From Stenotrophomonas rhizophila (GTDB lineage: Bacteria > Pseudomonadota > Gammaproteobacteria > Xanthomonadales > Xanthomonadaceae): 64,000 nt of DNA. The stretch lies in assembly GCF_003751305.1 (NCBI RefSeq), contig NZ_RJKV01000001.1, positions 1,097,586 through 1,161,585 of the forward strand, written 5' to 3'. The notes under the pieces were generated by a model. It was not told where the DNA came from and made no database searches. It saw only the letters and a list, made by a program, of their open reading frames with translations. The position numbers and the translations under genes were made by a program. Shown here one piece after another: positions 9,216 through 19,512 of this stretch. The first letter of the stretch is position 1, and each line of letters starts with the position of its first letter.

Positions 9216-10781
<1,566 letters not shown>

Positions 10782-10828
10782 TTCCAAGTCCCGCACTGTC
10801 TGGCAAAATCTAGCAAAAAATGCCTCGG

Positions 10829-10851
10829 AGCCCGCGTAAATGCGGGCTTTT
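10829..10851 (+). terminator. Rho-independent terminator after guaA
   Basis: Stem AGCCCGC / GCGGGCT with loop GTAAAT and a T run, 48 bases past the guaA stop. Its loop and right arm coincide with the left copy of the 14-bp direct repeat that flanks the island. Confidence 0.85.
10838..10851. repeat. Left copy of 14-bp direct repeat, candidate attL of the guaA island
   Basis: AAATGCGGGCTTTT occurs here and at 18072-18085, bracketing the whole foreign block. Here it is the right half of a complete terminator hairpin; at the other end the left arm is missing, which fits a duplicated attachment core rather than two independent terminators. This is inference, because terminator-like sequences recur by chance. 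Confidence 0.45.
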
Positions 10852-10984
10852 GCTTTCTAGGTGTGGCAAATCCAGATATCGTTGTGCATTGTCAGGCACG
10901 GCATTTCGGTGGCACTGGCGTCCGCGAGCTGGTGACGCACGCTCGCTAAAATACAATGACGCCGCTAACTCCAAGAGGCTCCAA

Positions 10985-11682
10985 ATGCTGATGGATTTGT
11001 GGAAGTTCATGAACGACCGGCGGTTTGCCGGCAGTGTCATGCCAATTGCCCGCAATCCACAACAGGGCTTCGGTTCATGGTCGGATGGGGAGACTCTGAT
11101 CGACTTGTTTTGTAGTCTAAGAGACAGGGACTACTGCCAACCGTTCATTTACGAATCCGAATTACTAGGGCTCCTTGAAAAGGCGCTCATGGACTCGATA
11201 CGTTGGGGTTCATGTGACATGCTCTCCACGTTTGTCGATTCGGTGGACGCAGCGAATGGGCTGCCCCCTAGCATCATTAGTGCATTGCACGCTGCTGTGC
11301 TGGAAGATTTCGAGCAGAATACCAGCCGCATTCGCGAGGATGATATCGAATCCTCCTTGTCGGACCGGATCGATGCTCTGGAGAAGCTCGGGTCGCGTTT
11401 CGTTGTGTCGGATTCTGTGTTGGATAGTGCCGTTTCAGCAATCGAGAATTGCATAGGGGAGTTGAAGAGCGAAGTAGTCGCGCCTCCTCTCCGAGTTTTC
11501 CATCTCCGAATAAGTGTGATCGAGAGACGTTTGATGACAGAGCTCTTCGAGACCTTTTCATCCCTCTCCTTGATCGCTGGGAAGACTTGGAGAACGGTGC
11601 GCAGCCCTTCGTTCAGATGTGCTGGGCAGTTATGAAAATTCCTCGGATTGTGAGGTATATCGCTGCTTTCGGATCACCGTAA
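10985..11682 (+). pseudogene. Frameshifted gene of unknown function
   Basis: The frame starting MLMDLWKFMNDRRF at 10985 looks coding for about 160 residues (helical and acidic, e.g. SLSDRIDALEKLG, VSAIENCIGELKSE). From about 11455 to 11490 the coding character moves to the +2 frame, which gives a Ser/Pro linker and then DRETFDDRALRDLFIPLLDR, ending at 11682. The first frame runs on to a stop at 11635 with poor sequence. I read this as one gene broken by a frameshift; a genuine stop in the first frame is the alternative. Codon use is AT-richer than the core genes. I do not recognise the family. A possible -10 (TAAAAT) lies near 10947. Confidence 0.5.
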
Positions 11683-11814
11683 TCAGCCGCGGAACGCGTG
11701 GATAATGTGGTTGATCACGGCGCTGCGCTGGTCAATACTGTGAGCCTGGGAACTGGTGCTCTATTTGGGTATAAAAGATCTAGCTAATTTGTGGAATTCA
11801 TAGGGAACAGGCTC

Positions 11815-13029
11815 TTGTCATCTTTTGGCTTTACGTTTCTTTCGAGAAAGGCACTTGGGCAGGCAGAGCAGGTGATGTTTGGCGCCAGCTCCGGCGTCCG
11901 CGATGAGGTTGGCTTCCTAATTGTTCACCAACGTTACGCAGACCATTTCTTCCCGGGTACCTCAGTCTTGCACACCCGACTCCGATACGCGCTTCTCATC
12001 CCTTGGATATATCAGAGCCTTAGGGCGAAGCGCTCGGCCCCCAGAGATTTTGCAAATGCATTTATTGATCTAGAGCATAGGCTGACTGGCCGCCTTCAGT
12101 TCAAAGACAATGAAGGCGAGCCCGATGGAGTTATTGGTGGTGAGGTCTATCCGCGCGCCATAAGTCAGCCGCCTGCCTATGTCTACTGGACGGCGCTCAC
12201 GAAATGGGGGCTGATCGGCGCCAGCCCCGACGGACGTCCTTGGAGCCGCCCGGACATGGCGCGACTGCTCGCAGCCGGGAGCAGGCGGTCGATGCACGAT
12301 GACGACGGCAAGCCCATCGAAACGGTCGCATGGCCGATCACGGGATTAATTGAAGCACCGACGGGATGGGATGGAGACAGCAAGTTGACGCTCGAACTCT
12401 CTGCACGTGAACAGGAATTTTTGGCACGCAAGCTCCGCGCTGTCCGTTCACCGAGCAACCCGAGTGAGCCATCCCTTCTTGCCAAACTCGTGGGGCGCTC
12501 TCTGGACCATATTGTGCATTGCTGGGGCGACGAGATCCTTAGCTTTGCGGGTAAGGACGCCGCCCCCATAAAGCGAGCCGGACAAGCCGCCGCACTCTCG
12601 GCGATTGGTAGGGCTGTCTACGCTGCACTCGTCGAATCGTTGAAGGAAACTCGTGACAAGCGTCCCCAGGAGAAGTTGCACCGCGCGGGGCTCGGTGACG
12701 TCGTTGATGAATGGGGCGCGCAGGCGGTGGGGCTCGATTTCGCTAAGTTCCTCCAAGATGTCGGCCACCTCCCCGCGGCCGTCGAAGCCGTGCTTCGCGA
12801 GACGCTCGCCTGGATCCGTTCGAGGACGAAGAATCCGGCTTCCCTGCTCGATGTCTATAGTAGGGCCGAGTACAGCCGAAAAGGTGATCGGTCGCGCCTC
12901 GCTAACAACCAGTTCGGTGTGGATCGGCGCATGGAGTGGCAGGCCGAGAATCATGGCTTTGCGCATCCGCTTCACTACCGCTGGGGCAATGTAAAACGAC
13001 TTCTACGGGACTTGGAGGGCGTCGTGTAA
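11815..13029 (+). CDS. DUF6361-like protein, first gene of island operon
   Basis: The product is about 404 residues. Its N-terminus (SSFGFTFLSRKALGQAEQVM, then FFPGTSVLHTRLRYALLIPWIYQ) resembles the DUF6361 family of unknown function, found near nucleases and helicases in accessory DNA. I chose the TTG at 11815 because it puts the conserved SSFGF at the very start and has AGGGAACAGG upstream; a GTG at 11791 would add eight residues. The middle holds RPDMARLLAAGSRRSMHD and the end is basic (YRWGNVKRLLRDLEG). No enzymatic motif is visible. The stop TAA overlaps the next ATG (TAATG), coupling it to the PLD gene. A role in target recognition or as a scaffold is inference. Confidence 0.8.
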   Translation: MSSFGFTFLSRKALGQAEQVMFGASSGVRDEVGFLIVHQRYADHFFPGTSVLHTRLRYALLIPWIYQSLRAKRSAPRDFANAFIDLEHRLTGRLQFKDNEGEPDGVIGGEVYPRAISQPPAYVYWTALTKWGLIGASPDGRPWSRPDMARLLAAGSRRSMHDDDGKPIETVAWPITGLIEAPTGWDGDSKLTLELSAREQEFLARKLRAVRSPSNPSEPSLLAKLVGRSLDHIVHCWGDEILSFAGKDAAPIKRAGQAAALSAIGRAVYAALVESLKETRDKRPQEKLHRAGLGDVVDEWGAQAVGLDFAKFLQDVGHLPAAVEAVLRETLAWIRSRTKNPASLLDVYSRAEYSRKGDRSRLANNQFGVDRRMEWQAENHGFAHPLHYRWGNVKRLLRDLEGVV

Positions 13030-14831
13030 TGGAGCGCCCGCCAGCATGGGACGGACAGCCCTATCTTGACGAGCTTCGCCCAGAGCGCGGCGAGACCGTC
13101 CGTCTGGCGCTGTTCGCGACCTATTCGGTGGACCTTTCGGCCATCGCAGCGATGCTGCTGGCGCTGATCGGTCGTAATAACGAGAAGGGCTCGGGCGCGG
13201 CGATCGATTTCGCAGAAGCGGTTGATCAGTTGCGGCACCGTGTGCGGATCATAGTTCAGCGCGGGAGAATCGTGCGGCCGGTTGCGCTACCGAGGGTCGC
13301 GGGTATTCTCGACCAATTCGTGATTGAGCAGGCGCATGACGAGCGTGTCCGCAGTTGGCATCCAAAGATCGCACTCGTGGAATACGAAGGCGAGAAGGGG
13401 CCGACCCACTGGAAGCTATGGATTGGGAGCCGGAACCTCACCCGGTCACAGGACCTTGAGGTGGGCGTGCTTCTCGACGGGTATGGAAAGCGTGGAAAAG
13501 GTCGAATGCGCCTCGACGGCATTGGTGATCTTGGCGCTAACCTTGCCAGAGCGGCCGGTCGGGCGGATGCCTCGGCCATAAGTGAGCAACTCGACTCTGT
13601 CTGGTGGGAGGCACCGGAGGGCTTTCGACTGCGGGGTCTTCTCGACGGTCTCGAAGACGGTGTCGCTCTTGCCGTCGAGCCTCCCGCGGGCACTATCGAT
13701 GGCATCACGATCGTTAGCCCGTTCCTCTCCCCGAATTTTCTGAAAGCAGCGGGGCGCTGGGGCCCGACCGGCGCGCGAACCTTGGTCTCCTCGATGCCGG
13801 CGCTAGTCGACATTGCGAACCGGTCGAGGTCGTCGCTCGCGGCCTTCTCACGTGTCCTCGCCTATGCGGCACCAGATGAGACCATTGAGGAGAAGGCTCC
13901 GGAGGTACCCAAGACCTCGATGTCGGACGACGAAGCCGAGCCGCAGCCTCTTGCGCTTCATGCCAAGCTCGTCGCTTTTCATCAGGGTGACACCACAATC
14001 GTCCGCGTTGGCAGCGCCAACGCCACTGACCGCGCTTGGGCTGGCAGGAATTCCGAAGTAATGGTCGAGCTCGAAGCGGGCGACGCGTTCAATGCCGGCC
14101 TCGATTTCTTGATCGGCAAGGCCACCCCCGTCACGATCGAGGCACTTGCGCAGACCAATCCCGCCGACACCAGCCAGGCGGATGCGCTAGAAGAATCACG
14201 CAAGGCGCTCATGGCATCGTGGGATCCGATCCTCCGCCGCGATGACGATCGCTTCGTCCTCGATGCGAGGGCAGAGCCGCAACTCACGGATGCGAGCCAC
14301 CGCCTGTCCGCCGGGCATGCCAATGGCGATCTTCTCGAGTGGCCCCAGGACGGTGTCCGGCTCGATCTCGGGGCTATTCCGCTGTCGATCCAATCAGCGT
14401 TCATCCAAGTCCGGATATCCTCAGCCGGGGAATCAGCGCGGTGGATGCAGCGCGTGACGATCGATCCTCCGCTCGATGAAAAGCGCGACCTCGCCGCTCT
14501 CGCCAGTCATATGGGGCTGCGGGCTTTCCACGATTGGATGCGGGCGATGCTAGGCGGAGAAACCATTCCGATCCGCGACGTTGCCTGGGACGAAGAAATG
14601 GAAGCGCCGGCCAGTGGGCGCAAGGCGCTAAGCTACAGCCGTTTGACGCTCGAAGACATTCTCACCGCTTGGGCTCGCGATGAGAGGGCGTTCACAAGGG
14701 TTGATAAACACTTCGGGCCCTATGTCGAAGCGCTACTTGCCCATGACGAGAACCTTACCACTGCGGAGAAGAAAGATTTGCACGAGCTCGCGCAAATTTG
14801 GGCGATCGCCCGCATGCAACTCGCCTCATGA
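13029..14831 (+). CDS. Phospholipase-D-like (HKD) nuclease
   Basis: The product has 600 residues. Two PLD half-sites are visible: H111-x-K113 with GSRN at 134-137, and H311-A-K313 with GSAN at 328-331 followed by NSE at 341-343. Two HxK...GSxN motifs in one chain form the complete PLD active site seen in nucleases such as Nuc, BfiI or DISARM DrmC. A long C-terminal domain (~residues 360-600) has no motif I recognise. There is no signal peptide, so it acts in the cytoplasm and DNA or RNA rather than lipid is the likely substrate. It starts at an ATG overlapping the previous stop and overlaps the helicase start by four bases. Confidence 0.88.
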   Translation: MERPPAWDGQPYLDELRPERGETVRLALFATYSVDLSAIAAMLLALIGRNNEKGSGAAIDFAEAVDQLRHRVRIIVQRGRIVRPVALPRVAGILDQFVIEQAHDERVRSWHPKIALVEYEGEKGPTHWKLWIGSRNLTRSQDLEVGVLLDGYGKRGKGRMRLDGIGDLGANLARAAGRADASAISEQLDSVWWEAPEGFRLRGLLDGLEDGVALAVEPPAGTIDGITIVSPFLSPNFLKAAGRWGPTGARTLVSSMPALVDIANRSRSSLAAFSRVLAYAAPDETIEEKAPEVPKTSMSDDEAEPQPLALHAKLVAFHQGDTTIVRVGSANATDRAWAGRNSEVMVELEAGDAFNAGLDFLIGKATPVTIEALAQTNPADTSQADALEESRKALMASWDPILRRDDDRFVLDARAEPQLTDASHRLSAGHANGDLLEWPQDGVRLDLGAIPLSIQSAFIQVRISSAGESARWMQRVTIDPPLDEKRDLAALASHMGLRAFHDWMRAMLGGETIPIRDVAWDEEMEAPASGRKALSYSRLTLEDILTAWARDERAFTRVDKHFGPYVEALLAHDENLTTAEKKDLHELAQIWAIARMQLAS

Positions 14832-17800
14832 GTGCCAGGTCCAAGCCGTTCCAGCAAGCGACGGTCGCAGCGGCTACAAAAGCTCTTGTCGGTGGAAATC
14901 CGCTTCGCCGGTACCTCGTTGCTGACGAGGTTGGCCTCGGCAAGACCGTCGTCGCTCGCGACACGCTCGCGGCGCTCGCGTACAAGGCCCGCAAGTTCAC
15001 GGTCTATTACATCTCGAGCGGTCACAAGGTCGCTGATCAGAACAAGGTCGAACTGCTGCGCTTCCTAGACGAGGATGCCGCCGACGCGGCGCTCTCGAAG
15101 ATTGATCGCGTCGGCCTCATCCCTATCGAGGAGAAACGTACCGGCAGCCTGCGGCTCTACGCGTTCACGCCCCACACTTCCTTCTCCAGCAAGAAGCGCC
15201 TCTACGGCGGCAAAGCGGTCGAACGTGCCTTTATCAAACTGTTGCTCGATGAGATCTATCCTGGGCTGACAAGCACGTTCCCGGAAAAATTCATTGAGCA
15301 CGGCGCGACGACAGGCTGGGACTGGGCTCTCGCCGAAGCCCAACGAAAGTTCGAATACGCCTCAGTTGCCTTCAAGACCGCCTATGGCCGGGCGCTCAGA
15401 GGAGAATTTGGCAGGGCTGCGCGCAAGACCATCTCGCAGGCGGCCAATGACGAGATGATCTCGGACGGCCACACGATCGGTCTAATGCGCAAGGCTCTGG
15501 CGCAAGCGGCGCTCGACTCCGCGAGGCCGGATCTTTTGATCCTCGACGAGTTCCAGTGCTACCGCGAGCTGCTCGATGCGCGCGCGGACAATCCACTCGC
15601 GCGCCAGATGCTCCAAGGCAAGGACGGCGCCTCGCCACCGCCAATCCTGTTGATCTCGGCCACGCCATACCGCTTTTATGCGGAGCGTTGGGAGACCGGC
15701 GCGGGCGGGTCGCCGCACGTCGAACTGTTCGATCTCATCGCGTTTCTGGGCGGTGCTGATGTTCGCTCCAAGGCTGAGACCCAATTCCGCCGATTCGGAG
15801 ATCTGCTGCACGCGATCGGCCGCCTGCCGGTCGAGAGCCGTGGGGCGGCGATCGGCGAGGCTGAGACGATCAAGCATCGGTTAGAGAGACTGCTGACGCC
15901 GCTCATGTCTCGGACGGAACGTCCCGCCGTTCGAGAAAGCAGCGAACCACCGCCCAAGCCCGTGCGGATCGAACCGCATGACCTAGACGTGTATCGCCAC
16001 TTCACCGCTGGAGTGCCCAAGAACATGAAGACAGCCACGATTGCCTATTGGCTGTCGGTCCCTTTGCCTGCACAGACTCTCGGCGACCGCTATCAAATTA
16101 CACGGGGTGTGGAATTCCCCGCGAAGCGCAGCGTCCCGCGTCTTGGCGTCACGACTTGGTCCAAGCCACCGAAAGATGCCTGGGGGAGTGCCAAGCTTCG
16201 GGCGCTCGGCGAGATCTTGCCAACCGATGCGCTCGCTCTACCTTGGATGCTGCCGTCACTGAGTTGGTGGGATCCTGCAGGCCCTTGGGCTAAGGTGGGA
16301 CGGCCCCAGAAGATGATGATCTTCAGCCGATTTAGGGCAACGCCGCAAAGCGTAGCGGCGCTGGTCAGCCTGGAGGTAGAGCGCAAGTTCGTAGGGAGAA
16401 ACTCTCTGGCCTATGCGAACGCTTGGAAGAAGCGCCACCTCAATCCTAAGCCTAATCAGGGGCCGACCTTCGCGCTCTTTCACCCGAGCCCGTTCCTGAT
16501 TCGCGCTGTCGATCCGCTCGACGTCCGCGACGGCGCTTCTATCAAGCAGGTTCGTGCTCGGGTAAAGCAGCAGATAATTCGGGCGCTTCCGGTATCCGTT
16601 GCGCCCGGGGCGCCGAACAAGCGTGATGGTCGTCGTCGCAAGCCAGCTTGGGCGGTGCTCGCATCAATCGAAGCTGCGAAGTTGCAGCCACACTTTCGCG
16701 ATTTTGCAGCGGTCCAAAAGGAGTGGGGACGTGTGGCGCCAAAGGACGCGGTTCTCCAATCCCTCCTCGAACAGCGTCAGCAGGCGGAGTCGATTAGCTG
16801 GATTAGCAAGTGGGAGCTCGACGCGCTGGTCGACATGGCGCTCGGCGCACCGGGTATTGTCGCTGGCCGCGCGCTCTATCGCCACCTCCCGGAGCTCTTC
16901 GACTATAAGGGTCAGCATTATCGTAAGTTGGCGCGGTTCTGCTGGACCAAGCTACGCACCTACCTTGATCGTCCGGTCTTTTGGTCGGTATTGCCGGGAG
17001 ACGACGCGACGGCCAAATATCAGCGCGCCTGCGTCGAGGGTTGTCTCGAAGCGGTGCTCGACGAGCATTTCTGGCTGCGCAAATCTAAGGTAGGAGGTAT
17101 CGGCCTCATCGACGACCTGTCTGGAGCGCTTTCCGCAAGTGTTGGGACGTTTGGCTTCAAAGGGCGGACGAAGAAAGAGAAGATCCGCATCCGTTGCCAT
17201 GCAGCTGTGCCGTTCGGCGGCACTGAGAGCGAGACGCAGCGTCAGGATCTGGGCGACGACAACCAGACGCCCGCGCGCTCGGAGGAGATTCGTCGCGCGT
17301 TCAATACTCCGTTCTGGCCCTATGTTCTCGCGACCACCTCAGTTGGCCAGGAAGGTCTCGATTTCCATAGCTGGTGCGACCGTCTCGGGCATTGGGACCT
17401 TTGCTCAAGCCCGGTTGATCTCGAACAGCGCGAGGGTCGCGTTCAGCGTTTTGGTGGCCTCACCGTCCGCCGTCCGCTCGCAGACAAGCTCGGAAAGGAC
17501 GCCTTGACCACGGCCCGGCGCGACCTGACCTCTCCTTGGGACGCGATAGCAAAAGGTGCCGACGAGGCTTTCAAAGATGACGAAACCGGCCTCACACCTT
17601 GGTGGACGCTTCCCGGTGCCGACCTCAAACGCCACCTGTTCGCCCTGCCGCAGAGCCGCGACATCGATCGATTCGCCAGGCTTAAGACGCAACGCCTCCT
17701 ATATCGCGTGGCGCTTGGGCAGCCTGACCAAGAGGATCTTGTCGAGCTTCTCACGGACAACGATCCAGAGGTCCTGCGGGTACTGCAGGGCTTGGCGTTG

Positions 17801-17836
17801 AATCTGTCAGCCTTCGCACATCGACGGCTTGGTTAG
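14828..17836 (+). CDS. Large SF2/SNF2-like helicase, third gene of island operon
   Basis: The product has 1002 residues. Motif I is ADEVGLGKT (32-40), motif II is DEFQ (240-243), motif III is SATP (277-280), and the second RecA domain has GQEGLDFHSWCDRL and motif VI EQREGRVQR. ADEVGLGKT plus a divergent Walker B is the pattern of SNF2/HepA-like translocases used in DISARM-type systems. A ~500-residue insert separates the two lobes (rich in Trp and basic residues, e.g. KRDGRRRKPAW) and may bind nucleic acid or the partners. The ATG at 14828 overlaps the PLD stop (ATGA). The context suggests that the helicase drives the PLD nuclease along DNA. Confidence 0.88.
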   Translation: MSARSKPFQQATVAAATKALVGGNPLRRYLVADEVGLGKTVVARDTLAALAYKARKFTVYYISSGHKVADQNKVELLRFLDEDAADAALSKIDRVGLIPIEEKRTGSLRLYAFTPHTSFSSKKRLYGGKAVERAFIKLLLDEIYPGLTSTFPEKFIEHGATTGWDWALAEAQRKFEYASVAFKTAYGRALRGEFGRAARKTISQAANDEMISDGHTIGLMRKALAQAALDSARPDLLILDEFQCYRELLDARADNPLARQMLQGKDGASPPPILLISATPYRFYAERWETGAGGSPHVELFDLIAFLGGADVRSKAETQFRRFGDLLHAIGRLPVESRGAAIGEAETIKHRLERLLTPLMSRTERPAVRESSEPPPKPVRIEPHDLDVYRHFTAGVPKNMKTATIAYWLSVPLPAQTLGDRYQITRGVEFPAKRSVPRLGVTTWSKPPKDAWGSAKLRALGEILPTDALALPWMLPSLSWWDPAGPWAKVGRPQKMMIFSRFRATPQSVAALVSLEVERKFVGRNSLAYANAWKKRHLNPKPNQGPTFALFHPSPFLIRAVDPLDVRDGASIKQVRARVKQQIIRALPVSVAPGAPNKRDGRRRKPAWAVLASIEAAKLQPHFRDFAAVQKEWGRVAPKDAVLQSLLEQRQQAESISWISKWELDALVDMALGAPGIVAGRALYRHLPELFDYKGQHYRKLARFCWTKLRTYLDRPVFWSVLPGDDATAKYQRACVEGCLEAVLDEHFWLRKSKVGGIGLIDDLSGALSASVGTFGFKGRTKKEKIRIRCHAAVPFGGTESETQRQDLGDDNQTPARSEEIRRAFNTPFWPYVLATTSVGQEGLDFHSWCDRLGHWDLCSSPVDLEQREGRVQRFGGLTVRRPLADKLGKDALTTARRDLTSPWDAIAKGADEAFKDDETGLTPWWTLPGADLKRHLFALPQSRDIDRFARLKTQRLLYRVALGQPDQEDLVELLTDNDPEVLRVLQGLALNLSAFAHRRLG

Positions 17837-18104
17837 GTCTTGCATGCGATCAGCAAGGGAATTGCTCCTGCGTGCGACGGCATAGTCTGCGACAGATAAA
17901 GAACAATGCGCTGATGTGTAAAGTGTTGTTTTTCTTGGTCTCGTGCGATTTACTTCTGCAGAAGCGCCGTTTTCACTGAAATCTAGCTGCTTGTTTATAA
18001 CTAAGTGGGAATTAGTCTGTGGCCAGCCCTGGGTGGTATCTGGCCGTACGGATGTACAAGTAAGTCCACGAAAATGCGGGCTTTTTTGTTTCTTCGGGTA
18101 TTGG
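17837..18104. other. Gene-free right border of the guaA island
   Basis: 268 bases, AT-richer than the surroundings, with no plausible coding frame. It holds the right 14-bp repeat and runs to the convergent end of the LysR gene. No integrase fragment, tRNA or hairpin terminator was seen. Confidence 0.6.
18072..18085. repeat. Right copy of 14-bp direct repeat, candidate attR of the guaA island
   Basis: AAATGCGGGCTTTT, same orientation as at 10838-10851 and followed by a longer T run. It lacks the left arm (GCCCGC) needed for a hairpin. The distance between copies is about 7.2 kb. Confidence 0.45.
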
Positions 18105-18992
18105 TCAGCGGTGGTCCTGACGCATCAGCGCAATGATGTCCCCAGCGGCCAGTCGCACCGGCTTTCTGCGCAGCCACACCAGATGCACTGGCATCGTGAC
18201 GCCGTTGGTCAGGTTGTCGAACGCGAGCACTCTCACGCGGCCAGCAGCGGTGGCTACCTCAACAACATCCACAGGCAGGTTGGCCCAGCCGGCGCCGCGC
18301 TCTACCAGGCCCAACGCCGCTTCCACCGAGTCCACGTGCCATCGGGCATCGGAGACCAGAAGCCGCCGGTCTGCGACGGCGTCATCGGGTCCAGCAATGA
18401 CGATCTGGCGGCTGCCGCTGAGATCTTCCAGACGCCGAAGGTCCGCCGGGAGACCGGGCGTGTCCGCCGTGGCCGAAGCGACGGCGACGAAAAGCACGTT
18501 GGTGACATAGGTGAAGGCCTCTTCTCGATCCACCTCCGTGGAGACAGGCAGCAGGACCAGATCGGCCCGCTCCTGGTGCAGCATCTCGCGAACCTGGTCC
18601 TGGGGCAGTCGAAGCAGGTTCACCCGCAGCAGAGGGTACCGACAGCCCACCCGGGCCAGCGCCTCCAGCAACGTCTGGTCCGGAACGCCGGCGGCGACAG
18701 CGACGGTCAGAGTGCTCTCCAGATTCTGCGAAAGCTCCACGGCATGGTTCTGCAACAGCCGCAGCCTGCTGGCGACGGATCGCGCGTGCGGCAGCAGGGC
18801 CAGTGCTTGTGCTGTCGGTAACGCCTCGCGGCGCGAGCGGTCAAACAGTGGATAGCCCAATCCGGCCTCGATGTTGGCGATACCCATGCTTACTGCGGAG
18901 GGCACCCGACGCAGCGCGCGGGCCGCGCCGGAGAAGGAGCCGTGGTCGACCACAGCGAGGAAGAGATCGATGTCATCGCTGGAGAGGGACAT
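18105..18992 (-). CDS. LysR-family regulator, divergent to PACE efflux gene
   Basis: The product has 295 residues. A winged helix-turn-helix occupies residues ~5-65 (DIDLFLAVVDHGSFSGAARAL, then RVPSAVSMGIANIEAGLG) and a periplasmic-binding-type effector domain follows. It is transcribed divergently from the PACE-family transporter, the same arrangement as AceR/AceI in Acinetobacter, so it probably activates that pump in response to a cationic biocide or polyamine-like ligand. The ligand assignment is inference. No good Shine-Dalgarno precedes the ATG. Confidence 0.92.
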   Translation of the reverse strand: MSLSSDDIDLFLAVVDHGSFSGAARALRRVPSAVSMGIANIEAGLGYPLFDRSRREALPTAQALALLPHARSVASRLRLLQNHAVELSQNLESTLTVAVAAGVPDQTLLEALARVGCRYPLLRVNLLRLPQDQVREMLHQERADLVLLPVSTEVDREEAFTYVTNVLFVAVASATADTPGLPADLRRLEDLSGSRQIVIAGPDDAVADRRLLVSDARWHVDSVEAALGLVERGAGWANLPVDVVEVATAAGRVRVLAFDNLTNGVTMPVHLVWLRRKPVRLAAGDIIALMRQDHR

Positions 18993-18996
18993 ATAT

Positions 18997-19015
18997 CTTT
19001 CAATATTTCTGAAAG
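18997..19015. promoter_or_regulatory. Candidate LysR binding dyad 1
   Basis: CTTTCA-N7-TGAAAG, containing T-N11-A, in the intergenic region next to the regulator start. It shares TTCTGAA with the second dyad 32 bases away, about three helical turns, which suits a LysR tetramer. Confidence 0.6.
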
Positions 19016-19026
19016 GAGGTGACTTT

Positions 19027-19045
19027 TTCAGTCAGTGATTCTGAA
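19027..19045. promoter_or_regulatory. Candidate LysR binding dyad 2
   Basis: TTCAG-N9-CTGAA dyad 45 bases before the PACE transporter start, in phase with dyad 1 at 18997-19015. Confidence 0.55.
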
Positions 19046-19089
19046 TATAGCATCCATACCCTTCGCCAGTGACCAAGCAGGAGGATGTG

Positions 19090-19512
19090 ATGCAGGGCGT
19101 AAAACGCAAGGTGATCTACGTCGGGGGCTATGAGCTTCTGGGACTCGCGGTGGGAACGATGGTCATGACGGTGCTGACCGGCAAGTCACCGGCCACCACC
19201 GGACTGCTGGCGCTGATGATCACGGGGATAGCCACGGTATGGAACGTGAGCTTCAACTACCTGTTCGAGGCATGGGAGCGGCGCCAGCGCGACCGCACCC
19301 GCACGGTACGCCGACGCGTGCTGCATGCCGTGGCGTTCCAGCTGACCCTAGTGTGCTTTCTGGTCCCGCTCATCGCATGGTGGCTGGGCATCACGTTGAC
19401 GCAGGCGTTCGTACTGGACCTGGTGTTCATCGTCTACATCCCTTTCTATACGTTCGCCTACAACTGGGCGTTCGACAGATTCTTCGGCGTTCCCAGTTCG
19501 GCGGTGAACTAA
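19090..19512 (+). CDS. PACE-family multidrug/biguanide efflux transporter
   Basis: The product has 140 residues and four hydrophobic helices arranged as two transmembrane-pair (BTP) domains: GGYELLGLAVGTMVMTVLTG with GLLALMITGIATVWN, and RRVLHAVAFQLTLVCFLVPL with FVLDLVFIVYIPFYTFAYNW. The repeated E-x8-N and RxxHA-type elements and the length fit the PACE (AceI) family of proton-coupled exporters for chlorhexidine and short diamines. The ATG at 19090 has an ideal AGGAGG five bases upstream; an in-frame GTG at 19069 is less likely. Regulation is probably by the divergent LysR protein. Confidence 0.9.
   Translation: MQGVKRKVIYVGGYELLGLAVGTMVMTVLTGKSPATTGLLALMITGIATVWNVSFNYLFEAWERRQRDRTRTVRRRVLHAVAFQLTLVCFLVPLIAWWLGITLTQAFVLDLVFIVYIPFYTFAYNWAFDRFFGVPSSAVN

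What the first reader, a model, noticed from the sequence alone, without database searches (positions are those of the whole stretch)
11815..17836. Three-gene DUF6361 - PLD nuclease - SF2 helicase system in a guaA island
Three overlapping genes (TAATG, ATGA) form an obligate-looking unit: a motif-free DUF6361-like protein, a 600-residue protein with two intact PLD HxK...GSxN sites, and a 1002-residue helicase with ADEVGLGKT, DEFQ, SATP and QREGRVQR. The pairing of helicase and PLD nuclease recalls DISARM (DrmC plus helicase), but there is no DrmA, DrmB or methyltransferase. I can assign it to no named defence system. The lack of a protecting methylase implies another way of telling self from non-self, perhaps via the DUF6361 protein.
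Basis: partly seen in the sequence, partly recalled or inferred. Interest (0 to 1): 0.9.

Follow-up and report, generated by a model that had tools for sequence, protein, structure and literature searches.

The report
Azaca phage-defence genes beside guaA
The three overlapping genes are a copy of an already named bacterial anti-virus system called Azaca, inserted at a well-known landing site at the end of the guaA gene, so the finding is real but not a new system.

Summary
The sequence observation is correct: three overlapping genes at 11815-17836 encode a DUF6361 protein, a PLD-type nuclease with two HxK half-sites, and a 1002-aa SF2 helicase. The claim that they fit no named system is wrong. 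They match, nearly end to end, the PADLOC models ZacA (5.7e-91), ZacB (1.1e-113) and ZacC (7.9e-263); a paper lists ZacC as the Azaca helicase. The trio is a fixed unit: the same 5 of 398 phylum genomes and the same 4 of 91 genus genomes hold full-length A, B and C, and 44 of 44 ZacC-type loci of a wider scan have zacB beside zacC. The window copy groups with mostly alphaproteobacterial copies (Bradyrhizobium, 67%). It lies in a 7.2-kb insert at the guaA 3' end, a known island site, empty in two relatives; no integrase was seen. ZacA gives a confident helical model without a match among solved structures. Most likely ZacC moves on invading DNA, ZacB cuts it, and ZacA couples or aims them; this is inferred. 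Interest is low; ZacA's role is the open point.

The parts
9216..10781 (+). guaA (GMP synthase); its 3' end is the insertion site
   Evidence: NF000848 808.6 bits against cut-off 400; present in 91 of 91 genus genomes
10770..10777 (+). left attachment core GAGTGGGA inside the guaA 3' end
   Evidence: the same 8 bases are the published guaA integration core (passages)
10778..18010 (.). insert of about 7.2 kb, absent from G026 and G067
   Evidence: empty sites: L048 and L049 align to 10270/10315-10851 and then on from 18004; alignment of junctions
10829..10851 (+). left copy of a terminator-like 23-nt imperfect repeat of the guaA downstream region (87% to the copy at 18063-18085)
   Evidence: family D2
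10820..11635 (+). insert ORF, 271 aa, unknown; not shown to belong to the system
   Evidence: no family above a cut-off; no relative in the other 90 genus genomes at E up to 1e-5
11815..13029 (+). zacA (DUF6361), 404 aa from the TTG start
   Evidence: PADLOC ZacA 5.7e-91 over residues 10-409 of the longer 412-aa frame; Pfam DUF6361 1.6e-13; confident helical model
13029..14831 (+). zacB, PLD-superfamily nuclease, 600 aa, two HxK-N half-sites
   Evidence: PADLOC ZacB 1.1e-113; PLDc_2; motif conservation
14828..17836 (+). zacC, SF2 helicase, 1002 aa
   Evidence: PADLOC ZacC 7.9e-263; motif conservation
18003..18010 (+). right attachment core AAGTGGGA (7 of 8 bases of the left core)
18063..18085 (+). 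right copy of the terminator-like repeat (the resident guaA downstream region)
18105..18992 (-). LysR-family regulator gene that flanks the insert (chromosomal, not part of the system)
   Evidence: Pfam HTH_1 and LysR_substrate; next to guaA in the empty-site relatives

Best explanation
The trio is zacABC, an Azaca anti-phage system carried as cargo on a small insert without a recognisable integrase at the guaA 3' end (identity: about 0.97). Proposed working, inferred: ZacC, an SF2 translocase whose next-best named relatives are the helicases of Dpd (DpdE) and DISARM (DrmD), engages invading or replicating phage DNA; ZacB, whose two HxK-N half-sites should build one metal-independent PLD nuclease site, cuts that DNA; ZacA, a helical protein with no solved relative found, holds the two together or aims and restrains them. 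Protection would then be by ATP-driven degradation of foreign DNA without a protecting methylase, so discrimination would rest on a feature of the DNA (ends, replication structure, absence of host proteins) rather than on a modified sequence (mechanism: about 0.45). Shown: gene content, motifs, conservation, co-occurrence, insertion site. Inferred: complex formation, cutting, sensing.
For: Near full-length PADLOC matches for all three proteins. A paper's methods name 'Azaca (ZacC)' among defence helicases (passage), and a review table lists a PLD-like domain for Azaca (passage). Same genomes, same place, same order A-B-C: 5 of 398 phylum genomes (read) and 4 of 91 genus genomes (read). Of 64 loci in the genome-contig scan, 44 are ZacC proper: 44 of 44 have zacB next to zacC, 43 have zacA sequence and 38 have all three as open frames. 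Catalytic motifs kept. ZacA relatives on 41 of 72,556 plasmid records, three regions read with DUF6361, PLD and a third large gene in a row. Two branch members lie near type I and type IIG restriction genes (L059, L071). One paper's table files Azaca under nucleic acid degradation, 'validated or predicted' (passage).
Against: No phage phenotype was or could be tested here. Copies outside the window's branch are only about 18-28% (ZacA), 22-24% (ZacB, 6 copies) and 28-31% (ZacC, 6 copies) identical, so function might have drifted. The original Azaca paper is not held, so the link of ZacA and ZacB to Azaca rests on model names, one paper naming ZacC, and recall; no experimentally validated copy is in my tree. 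Two other papers list the mechanism as unknown (passages). No contact between the proteins was modelled. ZacA's fold gives no hint of its role.
Confidence: 0.7

Rival explanations
1. Same system, other mode: Azaca works by abortive infection. ZacC or ZacA senses infection and frees ZacB to degrade host and phage DNA alike, killing the infected cell, on the pattern of the helicase-nuclease pair Hachiman.
For: In Hachiman a helicase restrains a nuclease until the complex meets damaged DNA (start of the abstract). Azaca too lacks a methylase in its unit, and a third protein (ZacA) accompanies the pair in 43 of 44 scan loci.
Against: No Hachiman model is listed for these proteins at E up to 1 (that the library holds such models was not checked). 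No phenotype data here.
Confidence: 0.35
2. A reduced or derived DISARM: a DrmC-like PLD nuclease with a DrmD-like helicase that lost DrmA, DrmB and the methylase.
For: Weak DrmC (9.2e-5) and DrmD (1.8e-9) matches; NCBIfam DrmD 42.7 bits and DrmC 18.9 bits.
Against: These lie far under NCBIfam cut-offs (610 and 133 bits) and over 200 orders of magnitude behind ZacC for the helicase; no DISARM model matches ZacA; none of the four insert proteins is DrmA, DrmB or a methylase by the libraries used.
Confidence: 0.03
3. A decayed passenger: the genes are intact by chance shortly after arrival but give no protection in this host.
For: No integrase among the four insert proteins; the three other Azaca carriers of the 91 genus genomes hold other branches of the system, not this one.
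Against: All three frames are open and the overlaps and catalytic residues are kept.
Confidence: 0.15

Closest known systems
Azaca (zacABC)
   Same: Three genes, near full-length HMM matches, PLD nuclease and SF2 helicase; same order in the related loci.
   Different: The window belongs to a distinct, mostly alphaproteobacterial ZacC branch; ZacC 28-31% identical to the six copies outside it, best segments 24-39%.
DISARM (DrmC, DrmD)
   Same: PLD nuclease plus SNF2-like helicase; weak distant similarity.
   Different: No DrmA, DrmB or methyltransferase among the insert proteins; far below family cut-offs.
Hachiman (HamAB)
   Same: Helicase plus nuclease (start of abstract).
   Different: No Hachiman model listed for the window proteins at E up to 1.
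Mokosh
   Same: A PLD-like domain, shared with Azaca in a review table (passage); helicase partner recalled.
   Different: No Mokosh model listed for the window proteins at E up to 1.
guaA-inserted genomic islands (GIsul2, ICERspD18B)
   Same: Insertion at GAGTGGGA in the guaA 3' end (passages).
   Different: The window insert is only 7.2 kb and no integrase was found in it.

Membership tests
Azaca | ZacA, ZacB and ZacC all present and full length | tested here: met
   profile spans 3-391/396, 5-579/586, 9-1018/1019
Azaca | Gene order A-B-C, same strand, adjoining | tested here: met
   same order in 51 of 51 other loci read that carry zacB and zacC, zacA sequence in 50 (L047/L058 and L065/L067 are near duplicates)
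Azaca | Intact PLD and helicase motifs | tested here: met
Azaca | Window falls within the Azaca clade of ZacC, apart from other SF2 helicases | tested here: met
   49 Azaca rows on one side of a branch with support 99, six outgroup helicases on the other (quick tree; long outgroup branches flagged; no experimentally validated copy included)
Azaca | Protects against phage | not testable with these tools
   needs plaque assays
DISARM | Core genes DrmA and DrmB in the locus | tested here: not met
   four candidate genes of the insert scanned; none is DrmB, and the helicase fits ZacC with 873.5 bits against DrmA 25.7; the rest of the genome was not scanned
DISARM | DNA methyltransferase in the locus | tested here: not met
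   no methyltransferase family among the four insert proteins
DISARM | DrmC and DrmD above curated cut-offs | tested here: not met
   18.9 against 133 bits, 42.7 against 610 bits
Mokosh | MkoA/MkoB models match | tested here: inconclusive
   no Mokosh model listed at E up to 1, but that the library holds such models was not checked
guaA-inserted genomic island | Attachment core GAGTGGGA at both ends and empty site in relatives | tested here: met
   left core exact, right core 7 of 8; empty sites in G026 and G067
guaA-inserted genomic island | Own integrase | tested here: not met
   no integrase family among the four insert proteins; smaller or overlapping frames were not scanned

The most novel reading that the evidence does not exclude
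The eight-member, mostly alphaproteobacterial branch to which the window belongs is a separate Azaca subtype, and its ZacA has a fold without solved relatives that acts as the sensor or specificity subunit of a methylase-free DNA-degrading complex; in part of this branch it works next to an AddAB-like UvrD/PD-(D/E)XK pair.
Probability: 0.25. Interest if true: 0.45.

Novelty: new member of a known kind. Interest (0 to 1): 0.15.

Why it matters
It corrects a claim of a new defence system: an existing defence-gene library names it. The locus is a compact copy (three intact genes, 6 kb, defined empty site), a usable test piece for a system that papers of 2023 and 2026 list as of unknown mechanism (passages), although a 2024 table files it under nucleic acid degradation (passage). 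The 46-sequence ZacA model (mean pLDDT 88.6) and the conserved residues listed make the role of DUF6361 directly testable.

Tried and rejected
DISARM and BREX membership: only weak, local helicase or PLD similarity. A phage origin for the proteins: no PHROG match for ZacA, only weak ones for ZacB and ZacC, and no ZacA relative in 50,697 phage records at E up to 1e-5. Solved relatives by sequence: none for ZacC at 0.001 or ZacA at 0.1, one marginal for ZacB (7clg 'putative helicase', E 0.009). Fold of ZacA: a first model from 8 sequences (pLDDT 71.0) and a second from 46 (88.6). Neither gave a Foldseek match with E under 0.001. Paper searches: 'DUF6361' gave none; ZacA, ZacB, ZacC as words gave 504 papers, the 20 listed all unrelated; 'Zac system' and ZacABC gave nothing relevant. 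The name Azaca was recalled and then found in 13 papers, of which I saw passages of nine. The original Azaca report (Millman et al. 2022, recalled) is not held. A fourth conserved gene: all-against-all blastp of flanking frames of 100 aa or more in 14 loci found none shared by all; the recurrent ones are a UvrD/PD-(D/E)XK pair in 4 of the 8 branch loci and a 1113-aa helicase in two of these. Not tried: transcription, promoters, naming of the host genus (a Stenotrophomonas-like genome is my guess from the guaA island), PADLOC on the flanks of loci other than L047, L056, L058, L059 and L071.
Full report
Observation. The three frames are real and as described: zacA 11815-13029 (TTG start behind an AGGGA that by eye could be a ribosome site; the frame opens at 11791), zacB 13029-14831 (TAATG overlap) and zacC 14828-17836 (ATGA overlap). 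Composition sets the stretch apart only in part: the eight 1-kb steps from 10001 to 18000 hold 52-62% GC, the rest of the window mostly 64-72%, with four other steps at 60-62% (19001, 41001, 47001, 61001).

Identity. Pfam labels the first protein DUF6361 (50.9 bits against 25), the second PLDc_2, and the third only marginally as Helicase_C. The PADLOC library settles it: ZacA 5.7e-91, ZacB 1.1e-113, ZacC 7.9e-263, each over nearly the whole protein and profile. The next-best helicase models are a candidate family (PDC-M27C, 8.6e-18), DpdE (2.2e-10) and DrmD (1.8e-9). A paper on Hachiman lists 'Azaca (ZacC)' among defence helicases (passages of PMC12278908). A review table gives Azaca a PLD-like domain, citing Millman et al. 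2022 (passages of PMC10952713). That ZacA and ZacB are the other two Azaca proteins follows from the model names and my recollection of that paper, which is not held.

A fixed unit. In 398 genomes of the phylum, ZacA is found in 5 (E up to 1e-10), ZacC in the same 5 (E up to 1e-60), and ZacB full length in the same 5 plus weak partial matches in 5 others (E up to 1e-10). At these limits none of the 14 control genomes rang. In 91 genomes of the genus, ZacA is in 4, ZacB full length in the same 4 plus one weak partial match, and ZacC full length in the same 4 plus 13 genomes with short helicase matches only. At the looser limits of these calls the ZacC model also rang in 6 and the ZacB model in 3 of 14 controls, as generic helicase and PLD models would. 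A scan of one genome per species (genome contigs) returned 64 loci. Of these, 44 (L056-L097, L099, L100) are ZacC proper: 44 of 44 have zacB directly upstream, 43 have zacA sequence, and 38 carry all three as single open frames (in L064 zacC runs off the contig end); L078, L081, L088, L090, L096 and L097 are cut by contig ends or broken. The other 20 are more distant SF2 helicases without zacA; one of them (L098) has a weak ZacB-like neighbour. Carriers range over Pseudomonadota, Actinomycetota, Bacteroidota, Bacillota, Chloroflexota and others, and one archaeon titled Methanotrichaceae; many are metagenome-assembled.

Conservation. In rows covering over 80% of the profile (49 ZacB, 49 ZacC and 47 ZacA of 52 loci), the ZacB residues H111, K113, N136 and E343 are kept in 49 of 49 and H311, K313, N331 in 48 of 49. 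In ZacC the Walker A lysine, DE of motif II, SAT of motif III, and Q867, R868, R871 and R874 of motif VI are kept in 49 of 49; for Walker A and DEFQ this is partly built in, since 41 of the 49 rows came from a scan that used those motifs as patterns. In ZacA only isolated residues are kept in all 47 (D30, G33, P47, Y58, G108, Y124, Y269, K356), with no catalytic signature that I recognise.

Place in the family. The other three carriers in the window's own genus lie elsewhere in the tree. The tool flagged long outgroup branches and uneven letter make-up. ZacA relatives are on 41 of 72,556 plasmid records, the nearest on Bradyrhizobium elkanii plasmids at 61%; one of those, typed as conjugative, carries DUF6361, phospholipase D and helicase genes in a row by its annotation. 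Acquisition from such a pool by horizontal transfer is the simplest reading (inference).

Insertion site. Two close relatives, G026 and G067, have guaA followed after about 100 bases by the same LysR gene, without the insert. Their DNA aligns to the window up to guaA's end and a terminator copy and then on from 18004. The left junction carries GAGTGGGA (10770-10777) and the right AAGTGGGA (18003-18010) (alone, this 8-mer is not rare: 4 matches in the window against 2.85 expected). GAGTGGGA at the guaA 3' end is the published core for GIsul2 and ICERspD18B (passages of PMC9376610 and PMC7775301). In S. maltophilia the interval between guaA and pgrR is a numbered defence island (#13), described as the most diverse in its systems, and Azaca is reported there from another island, #4 (passages of PMC11680222). 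Whether the LysR gene here is pgrR was not tested. Relatives hold other DNA at the site: a short-chain dehydrogenase-like and a second LysR-like gene in G008, and an ATPase-like gene set in G031, both judged by eye. No integrase was found among the four insert proteins scanned.

ZacA. With 46 sequences AlphaFold2 gives a confident, almost all-helical model (mean pLDDT 88.6, pTM 0.86), yet Foldseek finds nothing below E 0.001 in solved structures and the second look has no row above Z 4.0. This neither proves a new fold nor points to a function.

Mechanism. What is shown is a conserved nuclease-helicase-accessory unit. What follows from general family knowledge (recalled): a two-motif PLD chain builds one metal-independent nuclease site, and SNF2-like SF2 proteins move on double-stranded DNA. 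The rest is inference: ZacC recognises or translocates on incoming DNA and delivers ZacB, with ZacA as coupler or sensor. No methylase is part of the unit: none is among the four insert proteins, and in flanks of 14 loci no extra gene is shared by all. Restriction genes do sit near two branch members (type I in L059, type IIG-like in L071), but only as neighbours. Direct degradation and abortive infection cannot be told apart by sequence. Two papers list Azaca's mechanism as unknown (passages); one table files it under nucleic acid degradation, 'validated or predicted' (passage).

Verdict. The sequence reading was accurate and the insight of a helicase-PLD defence unit distinct from DISARM was right, but the system is already named. 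It is a new member of a known kind, in a divergent branch, at a known hotspot.

Noticed in passing
L056 22-5828 (+), L057 1-5081 (-), L058 15585-20965 (-), L047 16962-17978 (-), L122 1491-6499 (-): An AddAB-like pair (my label: UvrD helicase with PD-(D/E)XK, plus a PD-(D/E)XK protein; domains tested in L056 only, the others by blastp; PADLOC's best model for the first is RTasHel, 2.8e-41) sits beside zacABC in 4 of 8 loci of the window's branch, and by annotation on a Sphingomonas plasmid, in varying orientation. In L047 only a piece lies within the stretch held. It was not seen in the window region compared.
   Followed up: partly
L058 12229-15570 (-), L047 13606-16947 (-): A 1113-aa SF2 helicase (ResIII, Helicase_C in L058), 95% identical between the two loci, lies between zacC and the AddAB-like pair.
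   Followed up: no
window 18105-19512: Divergently placed LysR regulator (best NCBIfam model AceR, 164.6 bits, below its cut-off of 500) and PACE-type efflux transporter gene (160.7 bits against 80) next to the insert. The LysR was found in 5 of 91 genus genomes at E up to 1e-60, with at most 26 candidates scored per genome.
   Followed up: partly
window 10820-11635: A 271-aa insert frame with no family above a cut-off and no relative in the other 90 genus genomes; it overlaps the window's lowest-GC kilobase (52% at 11001-12000).
   Followed up: partly
G275:C6:288124-288735: A second, truncated ZacC (about the last 200 profile positions only) about 44 kb from the complete Azaca of the same genome, a likely relic.
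   Followed up: no
L055 695-4213 (-): In relative G031 the guaA site holds a different three-gene set, with an ATPase-like protein (GDSGKGKS motif), that may be another defence module; judged by eye only.
   Followed up: no
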